From: an uncultured Bacteroidales bacterium
Lineage (GTDB): Bacteria; Bacteroidota; Bacteroidia; Bacteroidales; UBA11471
Length of the DNA: 64,000 bases
Direction of reading: 5' to 3'
Assembly: GCA_947625885.1 (NCBI GenBank)
Contig: CANQQA010000009.1
Span: 1-64,000 of the forward strand
Notes under the pieces: model-generated
Told to the model about the DNA's origin: nothing
Seen by the model: only the letters and a program-made list of their open reading frames with translations
The model's database searches: none
Translations under genes and position numbers: made by a program
Part shown: positions 31,142 to 40,956 of the stretch, piece after piece
How positions within the stretch are numbered: the first letter of the stretch is position 1
How the letters are laid out: each line of letters starts with the position of its first letter

Positions 31142-34100
31142 TTATCGGGTGATAATCATTTTCTTGCCGTTCACGATGTAAGCGCCGGCAGGCAGCGTGC
31201 GGAGGGCGGCGGCATCGTTCGTCTCGAGCACCGGTACGCCTTGCAGGGTATACACGGTCAAGTGTTCGGCATCTGCCTGCGCCTCCGTTACCGACGACGG
31301 GGTGTCGGGTACATCGGGTTTGTCGGGCTCGATTGGTTCATCGGGCTCGTCCGGATTTTCGGGAACGTCCGGTACGTCAGGTACGTCAGGTGTGTCGGGA
31401 GTATCCGGATTTTCCGATTCGTTAGGATCATCGGGTACGTCGGGCACATCGGGCTCAGCACCACCCATCGACAATACAAAAAACTTTTTCCACCCGTCGG
31501 CAGCTTTATAGGCATCTACCGAACCCGCAGGTACATACAGTTTACAGGTTTCATAATCCACCCCATCGAAAACGGAAGTCCCGTAATAAACTATTTTTAC
31601 CGGCGTCGGGTTGTAAACGGTTACCGACTGCAAATTACTGCAACCGAAAAAAGCATAACTACCGATAGAGGCAACACTATTAGGTATTGTTATTTCTTCT
31701 AAACCAACGCAATCTTCAAAAGCCCCGCCCGGAATAGATTTTACATTTTCTCCGATATGTACCGTTGTCAAGGAGGTACATTCCTCAAAAACAGAATTCA
31801 TCTCAGTACAGGAATCGGCATTGAAATAAACATCCGTCAATCCCGTGCAATCGTAAAAAGCAGACCCGCCGATTGATGTAACATTCTTGGGTATCGTTAC
31901 CGATATCAAGCTCGTGCAACCGGAAAAAGCATAATGGGGAATGTGTTTGACATTCTCCCCGATATGCACCGTCGCCAATGCCGAACAATTGGAGAAGCCT
32001 CCGCTTATACAAGAATCGGCATTAAACCAAACCTCTTTTAAGCTCTCGCAACCGGAAAAAGCATAACTACCGATAGTAGCAACACTTCTGCCGAGTGTTA
32101 CCGACGTCAAGTCGTGGCATTCCTGAAAAGCAAAGTTGCCGATAGTGGCAACACTATTAGGTATTGTAACCTCTTCTAAACCACCGCAATTTTCAAAAGC
32201 CCCGCCCGGAATAGATTTTACATTTTCTCCGATATGTACCGTTGTCAAAGAGGTACAACCCGAAAAAACAGAAATCATAGAGGTACAAGAATCGGCATTG
32301 AAATAAACATCCGTTAAGCCCGTACAATCGTTAAATGCTCCATTGTTAATAGTGGTAACACTCCTCCCTATCATTACAGACGTCAAGCCACTGCAACCTG
32401 AAAAAGCATTGTAGCCGATAGAAGTAATACTATTAGGTATCGTTATTGATGTCAAATTCTCGCAATTGTAAAAAGCACTATTGGCAATAGAGGTGATATT
32501 CGGAGAAAATTCAATGGAACTCAAATCTTGTCGTCCCCTGAAAATCGAGGGAAAATGGCGTACATTTTTCCCAATATGAATACCGGAAATAGGTATTGTT
32601 GTATCGAAACTATAATCGCTAAGATTACAAGAATCGGCATTGAAATAAATCTCTTTCAAACCCACGCACTTGGAAAAAGCGCTACTTCCGATAAATGTAA
32701 CACTCTCGGGTATCGTAATCTCTTCTAAACCAACACAATCTTCAAAAGCCCAGCCCGGAATAGATTTTACATTTTCTCCGATATGTACTGTTGTCAAAGA
32801 GGTACATCCCTTAAAAACAGAACTCATATTGGTGCAGGAATCGGCATTAAACCATACCTCTTTCAAGCTCGTGCAACCGATAAAAGCTACCACAGGAAGA
32901 CATTTGACATTTTTCCCGATATGTATCGTCGTCAAAGAGGTACATCCCTTAAAAACAAAATGATTCATATATCCGCAGGAATCGGCATTGAAATAAACCT
33001 CTGTCAATCCCGTGCAATTCTCAAAAGCACAGTCATCAATAGAGGTAACACTCTCGGGTATCGTTACCGATGTCAAACTGCTGCAACCGGAAAAAGCTCT
33101 GTTGGGAATAAGTTTTACATTCTCTCCGATATGTACCGTTGTTAAAAAGATACAACCCGAAAAAACAAAACTTATAGGGGAGGTGGTACAGGAATCGGCA
33201 TTGAACCACACTTCTTCCAAGCCTCTACAATCGGAAAAAGCACGGTCGCCGATAGAGGTAACATTCTTGGGTATGGTCATCGAAGTCAAGCCATTACAAT
33301 CGGAAAAAGCATAACTGCCGATAGTTGCAACATTTCTGCCGAGCGTTACCGACGTCAAACCTCTACAATCGGAAAAAGCACGGTCGCCGATAGTGGTAAC
33401 ACCCTCCGGTATGGTTATCGAAGTCAAGCCCGTACAACCGGAAAAAGCACGGTCGCCGATAGAGGTAACATTCTTGGGTATGGTCATCGAAGTCAAGCCC
33501 GTACAACCGTAAAAAACATACTTGCCGATAGTAGTAACACCCTCGTGTATGGTTATCGACTTCAAGCCCGTACAAGCGGAAAAAGCATAGTCACCGATAG
33601 AGGTAACATTCTCGGGTATCGTTACCGATGTTATACCTTTGCAACCGGAAAAAGCATAGTCACCGATAGAGGTAACATTCTCGGGTATCGTTACCGATGT
33701 TATACCTTTGCAACCGGAAAAAGCACGGTCCGGAATCCGCTTTACATTCTCTCCGATATGCACCGTGGTCAATGCCTCACAATCGGAGAAGCCTCCGCTT
33801 ATACAGGAATCGGCATTGAAATAAACCTCTGTCAATCCCGTGCAATCGTAAAAAGCAGACCCGCCGATCGATGTAACATTCTTGGGTATCGTTACCGATG
33901 TCAAACCCGTGCAATCGTAAAAAGCCTTTTTGCCAATAGTGGTAACGCTCTCAGATATCGTTACCGACGTCAAGCTCGTACGGGAAAAAGCATAGTCGGG
34001 AATATATTTGACATTTTCCCCGATATGCACCGTGGTCAAGGAGGTACGATCCGAAAAAACAGAACTCATAGAGGTGCAGGAATCGGCATTGAAATAAACA

Positions 34101-37100
34101 TCCGTTAAGCCCGTACAATACCGAAATGCTCCATAGCCAATAGTGGTAACATTTTCAGGTATCGTTACCGACGTCAAACCCGTACAATTCTCAAAAGCCT
34201 CGTCGCCGATAGAAGTAACACTTTCGGGTATCGTTATTGACGTCAAGCCTCTGCAACCGGAAAAGGCACATTCAGCAATAGAGGTGATATTCGGAGAAAA
34301 TTCAATGGAACTCAAATCTTGTCGTCCCCTGAAAATCGAGGGAAAATGGCGTACATTTTTCCCAATATGAATACCGGAAATAGGTATTGTTGTATCGAAA
34401 ACATAACTATAATTGCTAAGATTACAAGAATCGGCATTGAAATAAACATCCGTTAAGCCTGTGCAACCTTTAAAAGCACTGTGGTCGATATAGGTAACAC
34501 TCTCGGGTATCGTTACCGACGTCAAGCCTCTGCAACCGGAAAAAGCATGGTAGCCGATAGAAGTAACACTTCCGGGTATCGTTACCGATGTCAAACTGCT
34601 GCAATCGTAAAAAGCCATTTCGCCAATAGTGGTAACGCTCTCAGATATCGTTATTGACGTCAAGCCCGTACAATTATCAAAAGCACCGTCACCGATAGAA
34701 GTAACACTGTTAGGAATCGTTACCGACGTCAAACCGCTGCAATTGTAAAAAGCATAGTCACCGATAGTGATAAGCCCGTTCTGTATTATTACTTCCTTCA
34801 AGCCGCTGCAATTGTAAAAAGCCCTGTAGATAGAAGTAACGCCCTTGGGTATCGTTACCGACGTTAACCCCGTGCACTTAGCGAAAGCCTCTCCGCCAAT
34901 GGTCGTAACGGTCTCAGGTATCAATATAGACGTCAAGCCGCTACATTCGTAAAAAGCGCCGACTCCGATAGAGGTAACACTCTCGGGTATGGTTATCGAC
35001 GTCAAACCCGTACAACCGTAAAAAGCCTCGTTGCCGATAGTGGTAACGCTCTCGGGTATCGTTACTGTCGTCAAATTCCTGCAACTGGAAAAAGCATAGT
35101 CGGGAATATGTTTTACATTTTCCCCGATGTGGAGGTTTTTTACGGCAGTATTGTAAAAAACATAGCCTCTAATAACGTCCGGCTCTCCCATCTGTCCCAT
35201 CGGATATCTAACTTCAATTCCTCCCATATAGCCGCAGGAATCGGCATTGAAATAGACGTCCTGTAAAGCCGTGCAGTGGTCAAATGCATTGACGCCAATA
35301 GAAGTAATATTTTTGGGTATTGTAATCGACGTCAAGCCCGTACAACCGTAAAAAGCCGAATCGCCAATAGCGGTAACGCTTTCAGGTATCGTTACCGACG
35401 TCAAACTTGTCCATCCGGAAAATACAGAATTACCGATGGTCGTAAAGTTTTCAGGTATGACAAACTCTGTAAGCGGCTTATTATCCAAATAGAGTGTGGC
35501 TCCGTACAAAAGCGGATTCCCTTTGCTTCCAAATGAAATCCGAAGCCACGCTTCCATATTCGAAATATAGACGGATTTCACATGGCTTCCCTCAAAAGCA
35601 TTATCACCTATGGTCGCAATACTCTCGGGTATCGTTATCGATGTTAAACTGCTGCAATACTGAAAAGTACCGACACCGATAGCGGTAACCCCATTGCCTA
35701 TCGTTACCGACTTCAAAGCGTTGCAACAATAAAAAGTTGAGTCGCCTATCGAAGTAACACTCCCGGGTATCGTTACCGATGTTATACCTTTGCAACCGTA
35801 AAAAGCATAATCGCTGATTGTTGTAACGCCTTCCGGTATTTTCAGGTCGGTTTCCGGTTTGCCGTTCACATAAACGTTTTTGGCATTAGCTAACGGATTG
35901 GCGTCTTGCCATTCAAAAGAAATCCGGCACCATGTTGCCAAATCCGGGATATACACATTTTCCAGATAACAAGACCAAAATGCTCCTCCACCGATAGTTT
36001 GAATTCCATTACCTATCGTTACCGACTTCAAACCGCGGCAGAAACCAAAAGCACTGCGCCCGATAAAGGAAACGCTATTGGGTATCGTTATTGACGTCAA
36101 ACCGCTGCAATAATAAAAAGCACCGTCACCGATAGAAGTAACACTGTTAGGAATCGTTACCGACGTTAAATCGACGCAACTGTGAAAAGCTTCTTCGCCA
36201 ATGACCTTAACGCCATTGGGTATTATTACCGATGTTATACCTTTGCAGTCGAAAAAAGTATAATTTCCGATTGTGTCGATTCCTTCGGGAATCGACAATT
36301 CGCCGGAAAGCGGTTCTCCTTTTACATAAAGAGTACTGCCACCATATAGGGGGTTAGAGCCTTGCTCCACAAACAGAATTTGAAGCCATTTCGCTATATC
36401 ATGAATATGTACAGATTTCGAATTAGTTTGACTAAAAGCATACTCACCGATAGTCTGAACACTCTCGGGTATCGTTACCGACGTCAAACCGCTGCAATCA
36501 TAAAAAGCATACTCACCGATAGAAGTAACACCGTCCGGTATTGTTAGCGATGTTAAGCTGCTGCAAGAGCGAAAAGCACCGGCTCCGATAGATGTAACAC
36601 CCTGGGGTATGGTTATCGACTTCAAACTGTTGCAATATTCAAACAAACCGATGCTGATGGTCGTAATACTCTCGGGTATCGTTACCAACGTCAAGTTACG
36701 GCAATGGTTAAAAGCATAGCGTCCGATAGAGGTAACGCTCTCGGGTATCGTTACCTCTTTCAACCACGTGCAACCGGAAAAAGCAAACTCACCGATAGTC
36801 GTAACACTCTCGGGTATCGTTACCGACTTCAAACCCGTGCAACCGGAAAAAGCAGACCCGCAGATAGAGGTAACTTGTTTGCCAATAGTCAATGAAACAA
36901 GACTTGTTTTATACCCGAACGGGGAGAGTGCGGCTGAATAAGAGATATTCCGTCCCAAATACACCGTATCCAACGGACAAAAGTCAAACATATATTCTGT
37001 CTCGGGAAAGTTCAATGTTTCCGTGCCGTCCTCTATTCGGAAATTCTTTAAGTGCGAGCAATATTCAAAAGCATGCTCTCCGATAGAGGTAACGCTTTTG

Positions 37101-37567
37101 GGTATTGTTATTGATGTCAAGGCACTGCAACCGTTAAAAGCCCAGTCGCCGATAGAGGTAACACTCTCGGGTATCGTTACCGACGTTAAACTGCTGCAAG
37201 ATTGAAAAACCCCGTAGTCGATAATGGTAACACTATTGGGTATCGTTACCGACGTCAAGTCGCGGCAAGACCGAAAAGCTCCGTCGCTGATAGAGGTAAC
37301 GCTCTCGGGTATTGTTATTGACGTCAAACCACTGCAACCGTAAAAAGCATGGTAGCCGATAGAAATAACACTATATTGAGTATCTTTATACATTACCTTT
37401 ACAGGAATGGTTACATCGCCTGAATAGCTACCTCCCGTAACCTCAACCGTCTTGTCGTCCAACGAAATAATGTTGTAATAGATACCGTCTGCTTCAAAGT
37501 CATATGCCCACGCGGCGGGGGCGAACAGCCATGCAGACAGCAACATAAAAAACAGTGTACGTTTCAT
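31142..37567 (-). CDS. BspA-like leucine-rich-repeat (LRR_5) surface/secreted protein, 2141 aa, with Pro/Asp-rich linker and C-terminal sorting-like domain
   Basis: Signal peptide [21 protein letters not shown]; dozens of ~23-aa [23 protein letters not shown] units; tail [17 protein letters not shown]. Confidence 0.95.
31600..37440 (-). repeat. Coding tandem repeat array, ~69-nt (23-codon) LRR_5 period
   Basis: Repeating core acc-gat-aga-ggt-aac-act-ctc-ggg-tat-cgt-tac-cga; approximate boundaries. Confidence 0.9.
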
Positions 37568-37663: not shown

Positions 37664-37700
37664 GAAGCGAAACGGCATCAGAAGGGATAGCCGATAGCCA
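37664..37700. repeat. Left copy of 37-bp direct repeat flanking the ART cassette
   Basis: gaagcgaaacggcatcagaagggatagccgatagcca, identical to 38636..38672. Confidence 0.95.
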
Positions 37701-37841
37701 TACCCGGCTACGTTCTAATAATGATTTGCATTTCAGTTGATTATAAGTAAACAACAGTTAATTATATCCTCAAAAACCTATAAATATTTGTGCATATCAA
37801 AAACTATTTGTTATTTTGGTGTCTAATAAAACACACGCACG

Positions 37842-38036
37842 ATGCCTAAACAGACAATACGTCGAGTCCTGACATGGGACGGAAACAGTACGAAAACAAC
37901 GATTTCATTGGAGGATTATATCTCAAAAATGAAAGCGTATGGCGCTTTGAAAGCAAAAAACGTAAGGACATCTCGCAACTATCTGCGAAATATGGGTCTG
38001 AACATTAATACGAAAGGAGAAATCTTAGCAAAATAA
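37842..38036 (+). CDS. Small protein (64 aa), putative antitoxin/partner of the downstream ART-like ORF
   Basis: MPKQTIRRVLTWDGNSTKTTISLEDYISKMKAYGALKAKNVRTSRNYLRNMGLNINTKGEILAK; 1-nt gap to next ATG. Confidence 0.65.
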   Translation: MPKQTIRRVLTWDGNSTKTTISLEDYISKMKAYGALKAKNVRTSRNYLRNMGLNINTKGEILAK

Positions 38037-38037
38037 T

Positions 38038-38603
38038 ATGCGGGATTTTCAACCCAACATCATTCTCGGTTTTCACGGTTGCACAAAAGAAATCGGCGAA
38101 AAAGTCATAGAGGGAAAAGAAGAGCTTAACCCGAACCATAACCCATACGACTGGTTAGGAGAAGGTGTATATTTCTGGGAAAACGACTACGACAGAGCAC
38201 GAGAATTTGCCGAAGAAAAGGGGAAAAACGAGCCATTTGTCATAGGTGCGGTCATATATCTCGGGCATTGTCTGGATTTAACGCAACAAAAAACATTCGT
38301 ATAGTAAAAGCGGCTTATACTAACTTAATTGCAGAGAGTGTAAAGAAAGGCGTGAAAAACACACCCGGAAAATACGGCGGCATAACGGGCGACCTGCTTA
38401 ACAGACAATTGGACTGCGCGGTTATCAATGCCATACATGAATTTAATGCCGGACACGGGATTCAAGAATATGACTCCGTAAGAGCGGCTTTTTGGGAAGG
38501 GGAAGAACTTTACGAAACAGCGGGATTCAGAGAAAAGAATCATATTCAAATCTGTGTGAGAAATCCGCAGTGCATCATCGGATATTTTTTACCGAGAATC
38601 TAA
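38038..38603 (+). pseudogene. PARP/ADP-ribosyltransferase-like protein split by a 1-nt frameshift (ORFs 38038..38304 and 38268..38603)
   Basis: IILGFHGCTKEIGEKVIEG...YDWLGEGVYFWENDYDRAREFA then, in frame -1, NIRIVKAAY...LDCAVINAIHEFN...HIQICVRNPQCIIGYFLPRI; adding one A at 38288-38293 makes one 188-aa ORF. Confidence 0.65.
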
Positions 38604-38635
38604 ATTCTTATTTTATCGTCAAGTTTTTTGTCTGT

Positions 38636-38672
38636 GAAGCGAAACGGCATCAGAAGGGATAGCCGATAGCCA
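38636..38672. repeat. Right copy of 37-bp direct repeat (overlaps tamA-like stop codon)
   Basis: gaagcgaaacggcatcagaagggatagccgatagcca. Confidence 0.95.
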
Positions 38673-40956
38673 AGTGGAAAGAGAGGCTGCGCCCGAAGCT
38701 CTCCATGTTGTAGTAGTGCGGACGGTCGTTGCGGGAGGGGTCGTGCAGCCCGATGCCCATGTCGAGGCGGATAACGAGGAATGAGAGGTCGTAGCGCAAT
38801 CCGACGCCCGTGCCGAGTGCCATGTCTTTTCCGAAAGTTTTCATGTCGAGGGTGCCGCCCGGGCGATTCTCGTCGGCGCGCAGCAGCCAGATGTTTCCGG
38901 CATCGAGGAACATGGCGCCGTGCAGGTCGCCGATGATGGGGAAGCGCCATTCGGCATTCATTTCCATTTTGAAATCGCCGGTCTGGTCGAGGTACGAATC
39001 GACCTTGTCGGCAGGCGGGGCGTAGCTGCCGGGACCTACCGAGCGTATGGTGAAGGCTCTGATGCTGTTGGCGCCGCCGATGTAGAACTGCTCGCTGTAC
39101 GGGAGTACCGACGAATTGCCGTAAGCCCACCCCGCTCCCACCATGAAGCGGGTCGCCAGCCACGAATCGCCCCACAAGCGGCGATAGTAGCGGAAATCGA
39201 GCGTCGGTTTGACAAATTGCGAAAAGGGTATTCCGAGAAATTTTTTGCTGCCCTCGCTGCCGGATACGACGGCATTCATCAGGTTGCCGGCAGTGGAGAG
39301 GGTTGCCTGCCAGAAAATGCGGTTAGCCGCTTTGTAGCCGAAAGAGCGATCGTAGCGGTAGGTGTAACCCAAAACGGGTATGAGCTGGTTGCGGAAACTG
39401 AGGGCTATGGCGGGATTGGCGGCAAGCGTGCTGTCGAACTCCGCCGTAGAGTTGAAAAGATAATCGTAGCTGAGCTTGGGCAAATGGAAGGTATGGAAGC
39501 TGTACCGCGACGACTGGAAGTCGAGCGCGATGGCGAGGTTGAGCGAGAGCATGCGGAAATAGCGCGGACGATTCATCAGGTCGGCACCCAGCGAGAATGT
39601 GGTTTTCCCGCCGTAGCGGTGTTCGATGCGGGTATCCCAAAACAGCGACGAGGGGAGCAGGCGCGGAAATGTCAAAGAGGCATTCACGCCAAATTCGTAG
39701 GAGTTGAGCAGGGAGCGTTTTTCGCCCGCACGTCTTTTTCCGGTCTGCCATTCGTAGGAGCCGGACAATTCGAGGGAGAGTCGCTCCCCGCCCCCGAAAA
39801 TATTTTTGTGCGCCAGCCCGAAGATGACGCCCGGACCGATGAAACTGCTGGTCGAGGAGGTAACATTCGCCTCGAACCACGCCTCCATCGGGGTATCCAT
39901 CGACGCCTCGAAAGTGATGTCGAGAAGGTCGGAAACGCCGCTCGTGTCGTGCGGGGCGACCGAAAGATTGACGTAACGGAACACACCCATGCGCATCAGG
40001 CTGTTGAGCGACTCCTCCTGCCGGTCGAGGGTGTAGAGGTCGCCCGGATAAAGGGTGATATTGCGTTCGAGAAAACGAAGGCGCACCTTGTGCGGTCGCT
40101 GGTAAAAGAGGGTCAGGTGCGACAGGCGCATCGTATCGACAACGCCCTGCCCCGTAAGGCTTTTCAATTCAAAGGCGACGTTTCCCACCCGATAGGTGCG
40201 GCGGGCATCTGCCGGTATGTTGGGGCGCACCTGCATACGCAAGGCGACCGAATAGGGAAGCAGGGTCGTATCGGCAAAATATGCCAGATAGTCGGGGCGG
40301 AAATAGTAATATCCCTTGTTGCGGAGGTCGCGGGTGATGCGGTTGCGCTCGGCGGAAAGGGTGGCGGCGTTGTAGATGTTGCCCACGTGCAGAAGCGTGG
40401 CTGTGCACGACGAATCGACAAGGGCGGTTATCGGGTCGGTCGGTCGCGGAAACTCTATCGACGAATAGCGATAGGGCGTGCCGTACACGACGCGGTAGTC
40501 GATGCGGGCTTTCTTGGGGTTGCGCCGGTTGTAGAGCAGTTCGTAAGTCGCCGACGAACCGAAATAGCCGTAATTGTCCAAAATCTGCGGCACGACGGCG
40601 ACCCGCAAATCGGGTTGCGCGGTGGAAATGAGTACGGGCGTCTTGGCGAAGCGTTCGTAGAACCAATGTTTGAAACCTTTGTCGCGGGTGGGGGTAACGT
40701 GGTTATAGACCCACAGACCGAAGGGGAAGGGCCACCGTACGTAGGGCGAAAACAAGGCGTTGTTGGGCTTCACCGAAAGGGCTTCTTTCACGGCGCTCTC
40801 GGCATCGCTTTCTATCTTCTCGCCTTTCTGCTCGGGCTCCATGCGTATCTTTTTCACGCCGGTGTACAAGACTTCGCCCTCTCCTATCCGGCTCGTGGTG
40901 TCGCAGGCGGAGAAACATACCGATATGAGTAATATGCAAAGGTATATCTTTTTCAC
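38650..40956 (-). CDS. tamA: BamA/TamA-family outer membrane protein
   Basis: Lipoprotein-type signal, POTRA-like region, beta-barrel with QFYIGGANSIRAFTIRSVGPGSY and C-terminal GYPF. Confidence 0.9.
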   Translation of the reverse strand: MKKIYLCILLISVCFSACDTTSRIGEGEVLYTGVKKIRMEPEQKGEKIESDAESAVKEALSVKPNNALFSPYVRWPFPFGLWVYNHVTPTRDKGFKHWFYERFAKTPVLISTAQPDLRVAVVPQILDNYGYFGSSATYELLYNRRNPKKARIDYRVVYGTPYRYSSIEFPRPTDPITALVDSSCTATLLHVGNIYNAATLSAERNRITRDLRNKGYYYFRPDYLAYFADTTLLPYSVALRMQVRPNIPADARRTYRVGNVAFELKSLTGQGVVDTMRLSHLTLFYQRPHKVRLRFLERNITLYPGDLYTLDRQEESLNSLMRMGVFRYVNLSVAPHDTSGVSDLLDITFEASMDTPMEAWFEANVTSSTSSFIGPGVIFGLAHKNIFGGGERLSLELSGSYEWQTGKRRAGEKRSLLNSYEFGVNASLTFPRLLPSSLFWDTRIEHRYGGKTTFSLGADLMNRPRYFRMLSLNLAIALDFQSSRYSFHTFHLPKLSYDYLFNSTAEFDSTLAANPAIALSFRNQLIPVLGYTYRYDRSFGYKAANRIFWQATLSTAGNLMNAVVSGSEGSKKFLGIPFSQFVKPTLDFRYYRRLWGDSWLATRFMVGAGWAYGNSSVLPYSEQFYIGGANSIRAFTIRSVGPGSYAPPADKVDSYLDQTGDFKMEMNAEWRFPIIGDLHGAMFLDAGNIWLLRADENRPGGTLDMKTFGKDMALGTGVGLRYDLSFLVIRLDMGIGLHDPSRNDRPHYYNMESFGRSLSFHLAIGYPF

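What the first reader, a model, noticed from the sequence alone, without database searches (positions are those of the whole stretch)
37664..38672. Small two-gene cassette bounded by perfect 37-bp direct repeats that duplicate the 3' end of the tamA-like gene
gaagcgaaacggcatcagaagggatagccgatagcca occurs at 37664-37700 and 38636-38672. The right copy is the native end of the tamA-like CDS (it encodes ...GYPF-stop); the left copy lies in the intergenic region upstream of the LRR gene. The 935 bp between them carries only a 64-aa ORF and an ART-like ORF. A 3'-gene-end target plus an att-like repeat is the geometry left by site-specific integration that restores the target gene, yet no recombinase is present. 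This could be a trans-mobilised toxin-antitoxin or defence cassette.
Basis: partly seen in the sequence, partly recalled or inferred. Interest (0 to 1): 0.8.

Follow-up and report, generated by a model that had tools for sequence, protein, structure and literature searches.

The report
Toxin-type gene cassette beside tamA
A gut bacterium carries a 1-kilobase insert with a toxin-antitoxin-like gene pair, placed so that it copies the tail of the neighbouring gene instead of breaking it; unrelated bacteria carry similar gene-sized inserts at other gene ends, with no enzyme of their own to move them, which hints at an overlooked way for small defence-type genes to spread.

Summary
A perfect 37-bp repeat (37664-37700, 38636-38672) duplicates the 3' end of a tamA/Omp85-type gene and brackets 935 bp; there is no third copy in the genome. 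The insert is a conserved two-gene module: a 64-aa protein and a PARP/CmdT-like ADP-ribosyltransferase (ART), here broken by a frameshift but intact in a relative. Three related species share it with tamA-like divergence, so it is an old, vertically inherited insertion; four other congeners lack it.

Related ART pairs sit between unrelated direct repeats at other gene 3' ends (tRNA-Arg, tRNA-Glu, CDS ends, terminators). For one, in Mucilaginibacter, empty sites exist: 111 of 129 further loci have the two flanking genes within 60 bp. Five of the 129 hold other recombinase-free, gene-sized inserts (four kinds of cargo, one a HepT/MntA pair), one of them between near-perfect copies of the gene end.

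Best reading: a recombinase-less, attL/attR-type cassette with toxin-antitoxin cargo. How it moved (recombinase in trans, lost integrase, or host recombination) is not shown. New variant of a known kind (compare the E. coli microcin H47 island).

The parts
37664..37700 (+). left (distal) 37-bp repeat: displaced copy of the tamA 3' end
37701..37841 (.). cassette leader upstream of the small ORF
   Evidence: alignment of three species
37842..38036 (+). 64-aa ORF, putative antitoxin/partner; family found upstream of the ART in 100 of 105 loci
38038..38304 (+). ART gene, first part (88 aa), contains the conserved H and Y; frame broken near 38290
38268..38603 (+). ART gene, second part in another frame, contains the conserved E
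38604..38635 (.). cassette tail between the ART stop codon and the right repeat
38636..38672 (+). right 37-bp repeat: 14 nt downstream of tamA plus the last 23 nt of its CDS
38650..40956 (-). tamA-type gene (Omp85/POTRA, 768 aa), the target whose 3' end is duplicated

Best explanation
The 935-bp segment is an inserted gene cassette: an ART toxin plus a small partner, most likely a two-gene toxin-antitoxin/defence module. It entered at the 3' end of tamA by an attB x attP-type (Campbell-like) crossover that restored the tamA end on one side and left a displaced copy on the other. Shown: the insert and its repeats; its absence from the tamA loci of four congeners; no recombinase in it or nearby; the same arrangement around related ART pairs at unrelated gene 3' ends; and, at one of those ends, empty sites and other cargo. 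Inferred: that the crossover was catalysed by a recombinase supplied in trans (for example a tyrosine integrase of another element) or by the host, because these cassettes encode none. In this lineage the insertion predates the split of three species, and the toxin frame is now broken in two of them.
For: Perfect repeats that complete the tamA end. Same cassette in G005 and G006, absent from G001-G004. Two-gene module conserved in 100 of 105 loci; ART fold and invariant H-Y-E. Other ART pairs between unrelated repeats of gene 3' ends: tRNA-Arg (L057), tRNA-Glu (L089), CDS ends (L116, L129), terminator regions (L083, L069). At the L116 target 111 of 129 congeneric loci are empty-sized and five carry other gene-sized inserts. 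No tyrosine recombinase in any of these inserts.
Against: No empty site with the same outer flank and no alternative cargo were found at the tamA site itself; only seven congeners are held. Cassette and tamA divergence are alike, so nothing shows present mobility. Repeat enrichment around ART genes over control ORFs is modest (8/102 vs 15/562, p = 0.016). A few ART loci have an integrase next to them, so an integrase may simply have been lost.
Confidence: 0.6

Rival explanations
1. Remnant: a larger integrative element with its own integrase entered the tamA 3' end and then lost everything but the addictive toxin-antitoxin pair between attL and attR.
For: Four ART loci have a tyrosine recombinase 39-214 bp from the ART gene (L110, L075, L112, L121); L121 lies next to a tRNA-Ala and L112 next to a gene I read as guaA. 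The insertion at tamA is old.
Against: The inserts are repeatedly trimmed to gene size (mostly 953-1171 bp around the pair) in different phyla. At gldG-dnaN six inserts with five kinds of cargo are all gene-sized and no integrase-bearing element was seen in the loci read.
Confidence: 0.22
2. Host-driven movement: no dedicated recombinase is involved; cassettes leave by RecA-independent or RecA-dependent recombination between the repeats and re-enter by homology to the same gene end in another cell.
For: Direct precedent in the microcin H47 island, which has imperfect repeats, no recombinase, and excises in E. coli K12 mutants lacking each known site-specific recombinase (PMC3191183, PMC5426353). 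Cassettes at one target share no end sequences, as expected without arm sites. Repeat ends vary between cases.
Against: It explains loss and exchange, but not how new cargo first acquires a copy of the target gene end. tRNA and CDS 3' ends are the classical targets of tyrosine recombinases.
Confidence: 0.2
3. Chance rearrangement: the repeat is a by-product of local duplication or genome shuffling at the variable tamA downstream region, unrelated to cassette mobility.
For: The tamA downstream neighbourhood differs among congeners, and G005's left flank differs, so the region rearranges.
Against: The arrangement recurs around related pairs at unrelated targets in several phyla, and at one site with different cargo and many empty sites.
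Confidence: 0.08

Closest known systems
Microcin H47 genomic island of E. coli (PMC3191183, PMC5426353)
   Same: Flanked by direct repeats acting as attL/attR, encodes no recombinase, needs functions from outside.
   Different: 13 kb with many genes, repeats of 144/148 bp at 76% identity, a single island in one species; excision was shown by experiment there and not here.
Tyrosine-integrase genomic islands / IMEs at tRNA and CDS 3' ends (PMC5704250, PMC8409611)
   Same: Duplicated 3' end of the target gene, which is restored; tRNA ends among the targets.
   Different: No integrase; insert limited to one or two genes.
dif/pdif modules of Acinetobacter plasmids (PMC13141974, PMC6449649)
   Same: Small modules, often toxin-antitoxin, without their own recombinase, moved in trans (by host XerC/XerD).
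   Different: pdif sites are one conserved sequence; here each target has its own unrelated repeat, taken from the neighbouring gene. A dif-like sequence was not evident by eye; no formal scan was made.
CmdTAC / PD-T4-9 defence system (PMC9519451, PMC11618068)
   Same: ART toxin with an H-Y-E type triad; PADLOC PD-T4-9_A match, E 2e-6 to 8e-6.
   Different: No SecB-like chaperone gene; a different small partner; the match covers only about 55 residues.
Integron gene cassettes
   Same: Gene-sized mobile units, toxin-antitoxin cargo common (general knowledge).
   Different: No attC or integron integrase identified (not formally scanned); insertion of a cassette does not duplicate 37-66 bp of a target gene.

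Membership tests
Tyrosine-integrase genomic island / IME | direct repeats with one copy completing the 3' end of the target gene | tested here: met
Tyrosine-integrase genomic island / IME | integrase gene inside the element | tested here: not met
   only the small and ART genes lie between the repeats; no recombinase in the window by profile search
Tyrosine-integrase genomic island / IME | empty target site in relatives | tested here: inconclusive
   tamA site: absent from four congeners but with other flanks; analogous gldG-dnaN site: met
Tyrosine-integrase genomic island / IME | excised circular form | not testable with these tools
   needs PCR or raw reads
Recombinase-less DR-flanked island (MccH47 type) | flanking repeats and no recombinase | tested here: met
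Recombinase-less DR-flanked island (MccH47 type) | demonstrated excision or integration | not testable with these tools
   needs experiment
CmdTAC (PD-T4-9) | CmdT-like ART | tested here: inconclusive
   partial profile match; PARP-like predicted fold
CmdTAC (PD-T4-9) | SecB-like chaperone as third gene | tested here: not met
   no third gene between the repeats; next genes are tamA and the LRR gene
Two-gene toxin-antitoxin module | conserved adjacent small partner and toxin-type enzyme | tested here: met
   100 of 105 loci; also on plasmids
Two-gene toxin-antitoxin module | toxicity neutralised by the partner | not testable with these tools
   needs expression assay
pdif (Xer) module | dif-like XerC/XerD sites at the ends | not tested
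   the 37-mer does not look dif-like by eye; no formal scan was made

The most novel reading that the evidence does not exclude
Gene-sized, recombinase-less cassettes carrying single toxin-antitoxin or defence modules are a widespread class of mobile DNA. They insert at gene 3' ends (tRNA, CDS, terminators) with a duplication of about 30-130 bp that keeps the target intact, exchange cargo at fixed sites such as gldG-dnaN, and are moved by a common trans-acting or host process not yet recognised.
Probability: 0.3. Interest if true: 0.85.

Novelty: new variant of a known kind. Interest (0 to 1): 0.6.

Why it matters
Small defence and toxin-antitoxin genes move between bacteria faster than known vehicles easily explain. 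If gene-sized cassettes can settle at gene ends with only a duplicated target end and borrowed recombination, many isolated TA or defence genes now scored as chromosomal singletons are mobile units with definable boundaries. The gldG-dnaN site, with many empty sites and several different inserts within one genus that has cultured members, makes this directly testable.

Tried and rejected
Dispersed repeat: rejected, only two copies in the genome. Phage carrying the tamA att core: an exact 27-mer had no match in IMG/VR. ART relatives in phages and plasmids: two partial phage records and 64 plasmids; two Acinetobacter plasmids were opened but not tested for Xer sites. Recent transfer among the three species: not supported. 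Counting every flanking repeat as evidence: repeats in L143, L103, L102, L052 and L078 are dispersed or multi-copy and were set aside. Enrichment statistics alone: weak and partly post hoc. G005's different left flank: a fimbrillin cluster lies between tamA and the PBP gene in G005 and beside the PBP gene in G006, but G006 contigs break before the link, so the order of events is unresolved. Integrase-bearing ART loci (L110, L075, L112, L121): no repeats found around the gene block within the fetched flanks. Literature searches for known mini-islands returned MccH47, dif modules and standard islands; the library is incomplete.

Full report
OBSERVATION. The 37-mer occurs at 37664-37700 and 38636-38672 without mismatch and nowhere else in the window or the 2.3-Mb genome, even with three mismatches. 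The right copy is the end of a 768-aa Omp85/POTRA (tamA-type) gene on the minus strand: 23 nt ending in the stop codon plus 14 nt beyond. The 935 bp between the copies hold a 64-aa ORF and an ART-like gene. One relative (G006) has an intact 188-aa gene; a second (G005) is frameshifted at the same tract.

CARGO. The small ORF belongs to a family found directly upstream of the ART in 100 of 105 ART loci from many phyla (loci). The ART matches the PADLOC PD-T4-9_A models, that is CmdT, over about 55 residues, and one PHROG of unknown function along its whole length. Pfam gives nothing over its cut-offs. In 42 homologues H13, Y45 and E154 are invariant. A predicted model (mean pLDDT 87) has PARP catalytic domains as its best structural matches, with E about 1e-3 and modest TM-scores. 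A two-gene ART toxin-antitoxin module is the natural reading (inference). It is not CmdTAC, because there is no chaperone gene. CmdT itself is an mRNA ADP-ribosyltransferase used in abortive defence (PMC11618068); whether this relative shares that target is unknown.

THE SITE IN RELATIVES. Seven genomes of the genus are held, the window's own included. G005 and G006, whose tamA proteins are 97% identical, have the same cassette at the same place; the record titles behind these two name them as uncultured Bacteroidales bins 'Lapin', presumably rabbit gut. Cassette and tamA have diverged alike (ART about 95%, tamA about 96% nucleotide identity; the small gene 99.5-100%), so the insertion is old and vertically inherited. 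In the other four (tamA 70-74%) there is no repeat and no cassette, and tamA is followed by other sequence. In G005 the DNA left of the distal repeat is different: a fimbrillin-type gene (my reading) whose stop codon abuts the repeat, in place of the LRR gene. The repeat is therefore also the point where left flanks diverge. The order of those events could not be reconstructed.

THE SAME ARRANGEMENT ELSEWHERE. I looked for direct repeats bracketing the pair in 104 related ART loci. Clear cases, all with unrelated repeat sequences: L057, 45 bp from the 3' part of a tRNA-Arg gene; L089, a tRNA-Glu 3' end, 2.2 kb holding the ART pair and a second pair that I read as acetyltransferase toxin plus antitoxin; L116, 66 bp, the 3' end of a CDS; L129, 69 bp, the 3' end of a CDS, diverged; L083, 38 bp, a terminator-like hairpin 28 nt after a gene; L069, 132 bp, diverged, a terminator region. 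Spacings are 953, 965, 972 (window), 973, 1128 and 1171 bp, and 2231 bp for L089. The excess over control ORFs is modest (8/102 vs 15/562, Fisher p = 0.016 at score 25, 0.004 at 35). Many control hits are gene duplications or dispersed repeats. I rely on the anatomy more than on this number.

EMPTY SITES AND OTHER CARGO. L116 is a Mucilaginibacter bin. Its target gene (gldG-like by my reading) is followed by dnaN (my reading). Of 150 genomes of that genus searched I read 129 loci besides L116. In 111 the gap between the two genes is 60 bp or less, typically 33-38 bp, with a single copy of the gene end. Five of the 129 carry gene-sized inserts: a HepT/MntA pair (gap 844 bp; Pfam), a 200-aa plus a 45-aa ORF (951), a 247-aa ORF (806), and 132- and 122-aa relatives of one another (538 each). 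With the ART pair of L116 (gap 1002) that is six inserts with five kinds of cargo. In L283 the gene end is duplicated with one mismatch in 59 bp, in L116 with three in 66 bp, in L164 with more changes; in L172 the second copy is badly decayed, and in L258 and L265 it is not recognisable by alignment beyond the promoter side. Eight more loci have short inserts of about 80-130 bp (gaps 114-164 bp), in part palindromic repeats. The remaining five are undetermined or gapped (contig ends, a run of N, one gene end missed by the script). None of the gene-sized inserts has a tyrosine recombinase.

RECOMBINASES. A profile built from 20 tyrosine recombinases of the host genomes finds none in the window or in the fetched flanks of L057, L083, L089, L116, L069 and L129, although each of the six host genomes tested holds 2-9 such genes. 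Four ART loci do have an adjacent tyrosine recombinase (L110, L075, L112, L121); L121 has a tRNA-Ala upstream and L112 lies next to a gene I read as guaA. The ART pair therefore also travels with integrases, which keeps the remnant hypothesis alive.

MECHANISM. Shown: insertion-type anatomy, restored target end, TA-like cargo, no recombinase, recurrence at unrelated targets, empty sites and cargo diversity at one target. Inferred: an attB x attP-type crossover by a recombinase in trans. Alternatives are loss of an integrase after insertion, or host recombination between repeats, for which the microcin H47 island is the experimental precedent (PMC3191183, PMC5426353). Gene-sized inserts only, at a site read in 130 genomes, speak against simple decay. 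The lack of common sequence at cassette ends (by eye) speaks against one dedicated integrase with arm-type sites.

VERDICT. The finding is real and better than ordinary, but at the tamA site itself it is an old insertion with a damaged toxin gene. Its value is as one instance of a recurrent, little-described arrangement. I file it as a new variant of a known kind (recombinase-less islands between direct repeats). I do not file it as a member of the integrase-island class, because the defining recombinase was looked for and is absent.

Noticed in passing
window 38285-38300: The ART frame breaks at an A-run; G005 is also frameshifted at the same tract while G006 is intact, so the tract may be phase-variable or decaying.
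   Followed up: partly
window 31142-37567: A 2141-aa leucine-rich-repeat (BspA-like by my reading) gene with 69-nt repeat units lies next to the left repeat; G005 has a fimbrillin-type cluster there instead.
   Followed up: partly
L283 (G193:C1:494500-496825): Freshest-looking gldG-dnaN insert: a 200-aa, probably membrane, protein and a 45-aa ORF without Pfam match, between copies differing at one of 59 bp; a candidate unknown defence gene.
   Followed up: partly
L265 (G230:C79:72717-75000): HepT/MntA-type toxin-antitoxin pair inserted between gldG-like and dnaN in a Mucilaginibacter genome, with the second copy of the gene end mostly decayed.
   Followed up: partly
L089:5592-7842: Between tRNA-Glu 3' end repeats lie the ART pair and a second pair that looks like a GNAT toxin with a DUF1778-type antitoxin, and no integrase: a 2.2-kb two-module island.
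   Followed up: no
L112:5723-9539: ART pair directly followed by a full-length tyrosine recombinase next to a guaA-like gene; a possible autonomous counterpart of the cassette.
   Followed up: partly
L158, L188, L231, L239, L244, L269, L270, L274: Gaps of 114-164 bp between gldG-like and dnaN in eight Mucilaginibacter genomes, in several cases filled by palindromic repeat-type sequence.
   Followed up: no
L078:554-3170: A Prevotella ART gene lies in an array with three copies of a Crp-like gene 3' end/terminator sequence; possibly tandem cassettes.
   Followed up: no
G006 contigs C18 and C30 (L018/L214, L213): Two contigs of one assembly are 99.9% identical over 17 kb around tamA; probably strain variants or an assembly duplicate.
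   Followed up: yes
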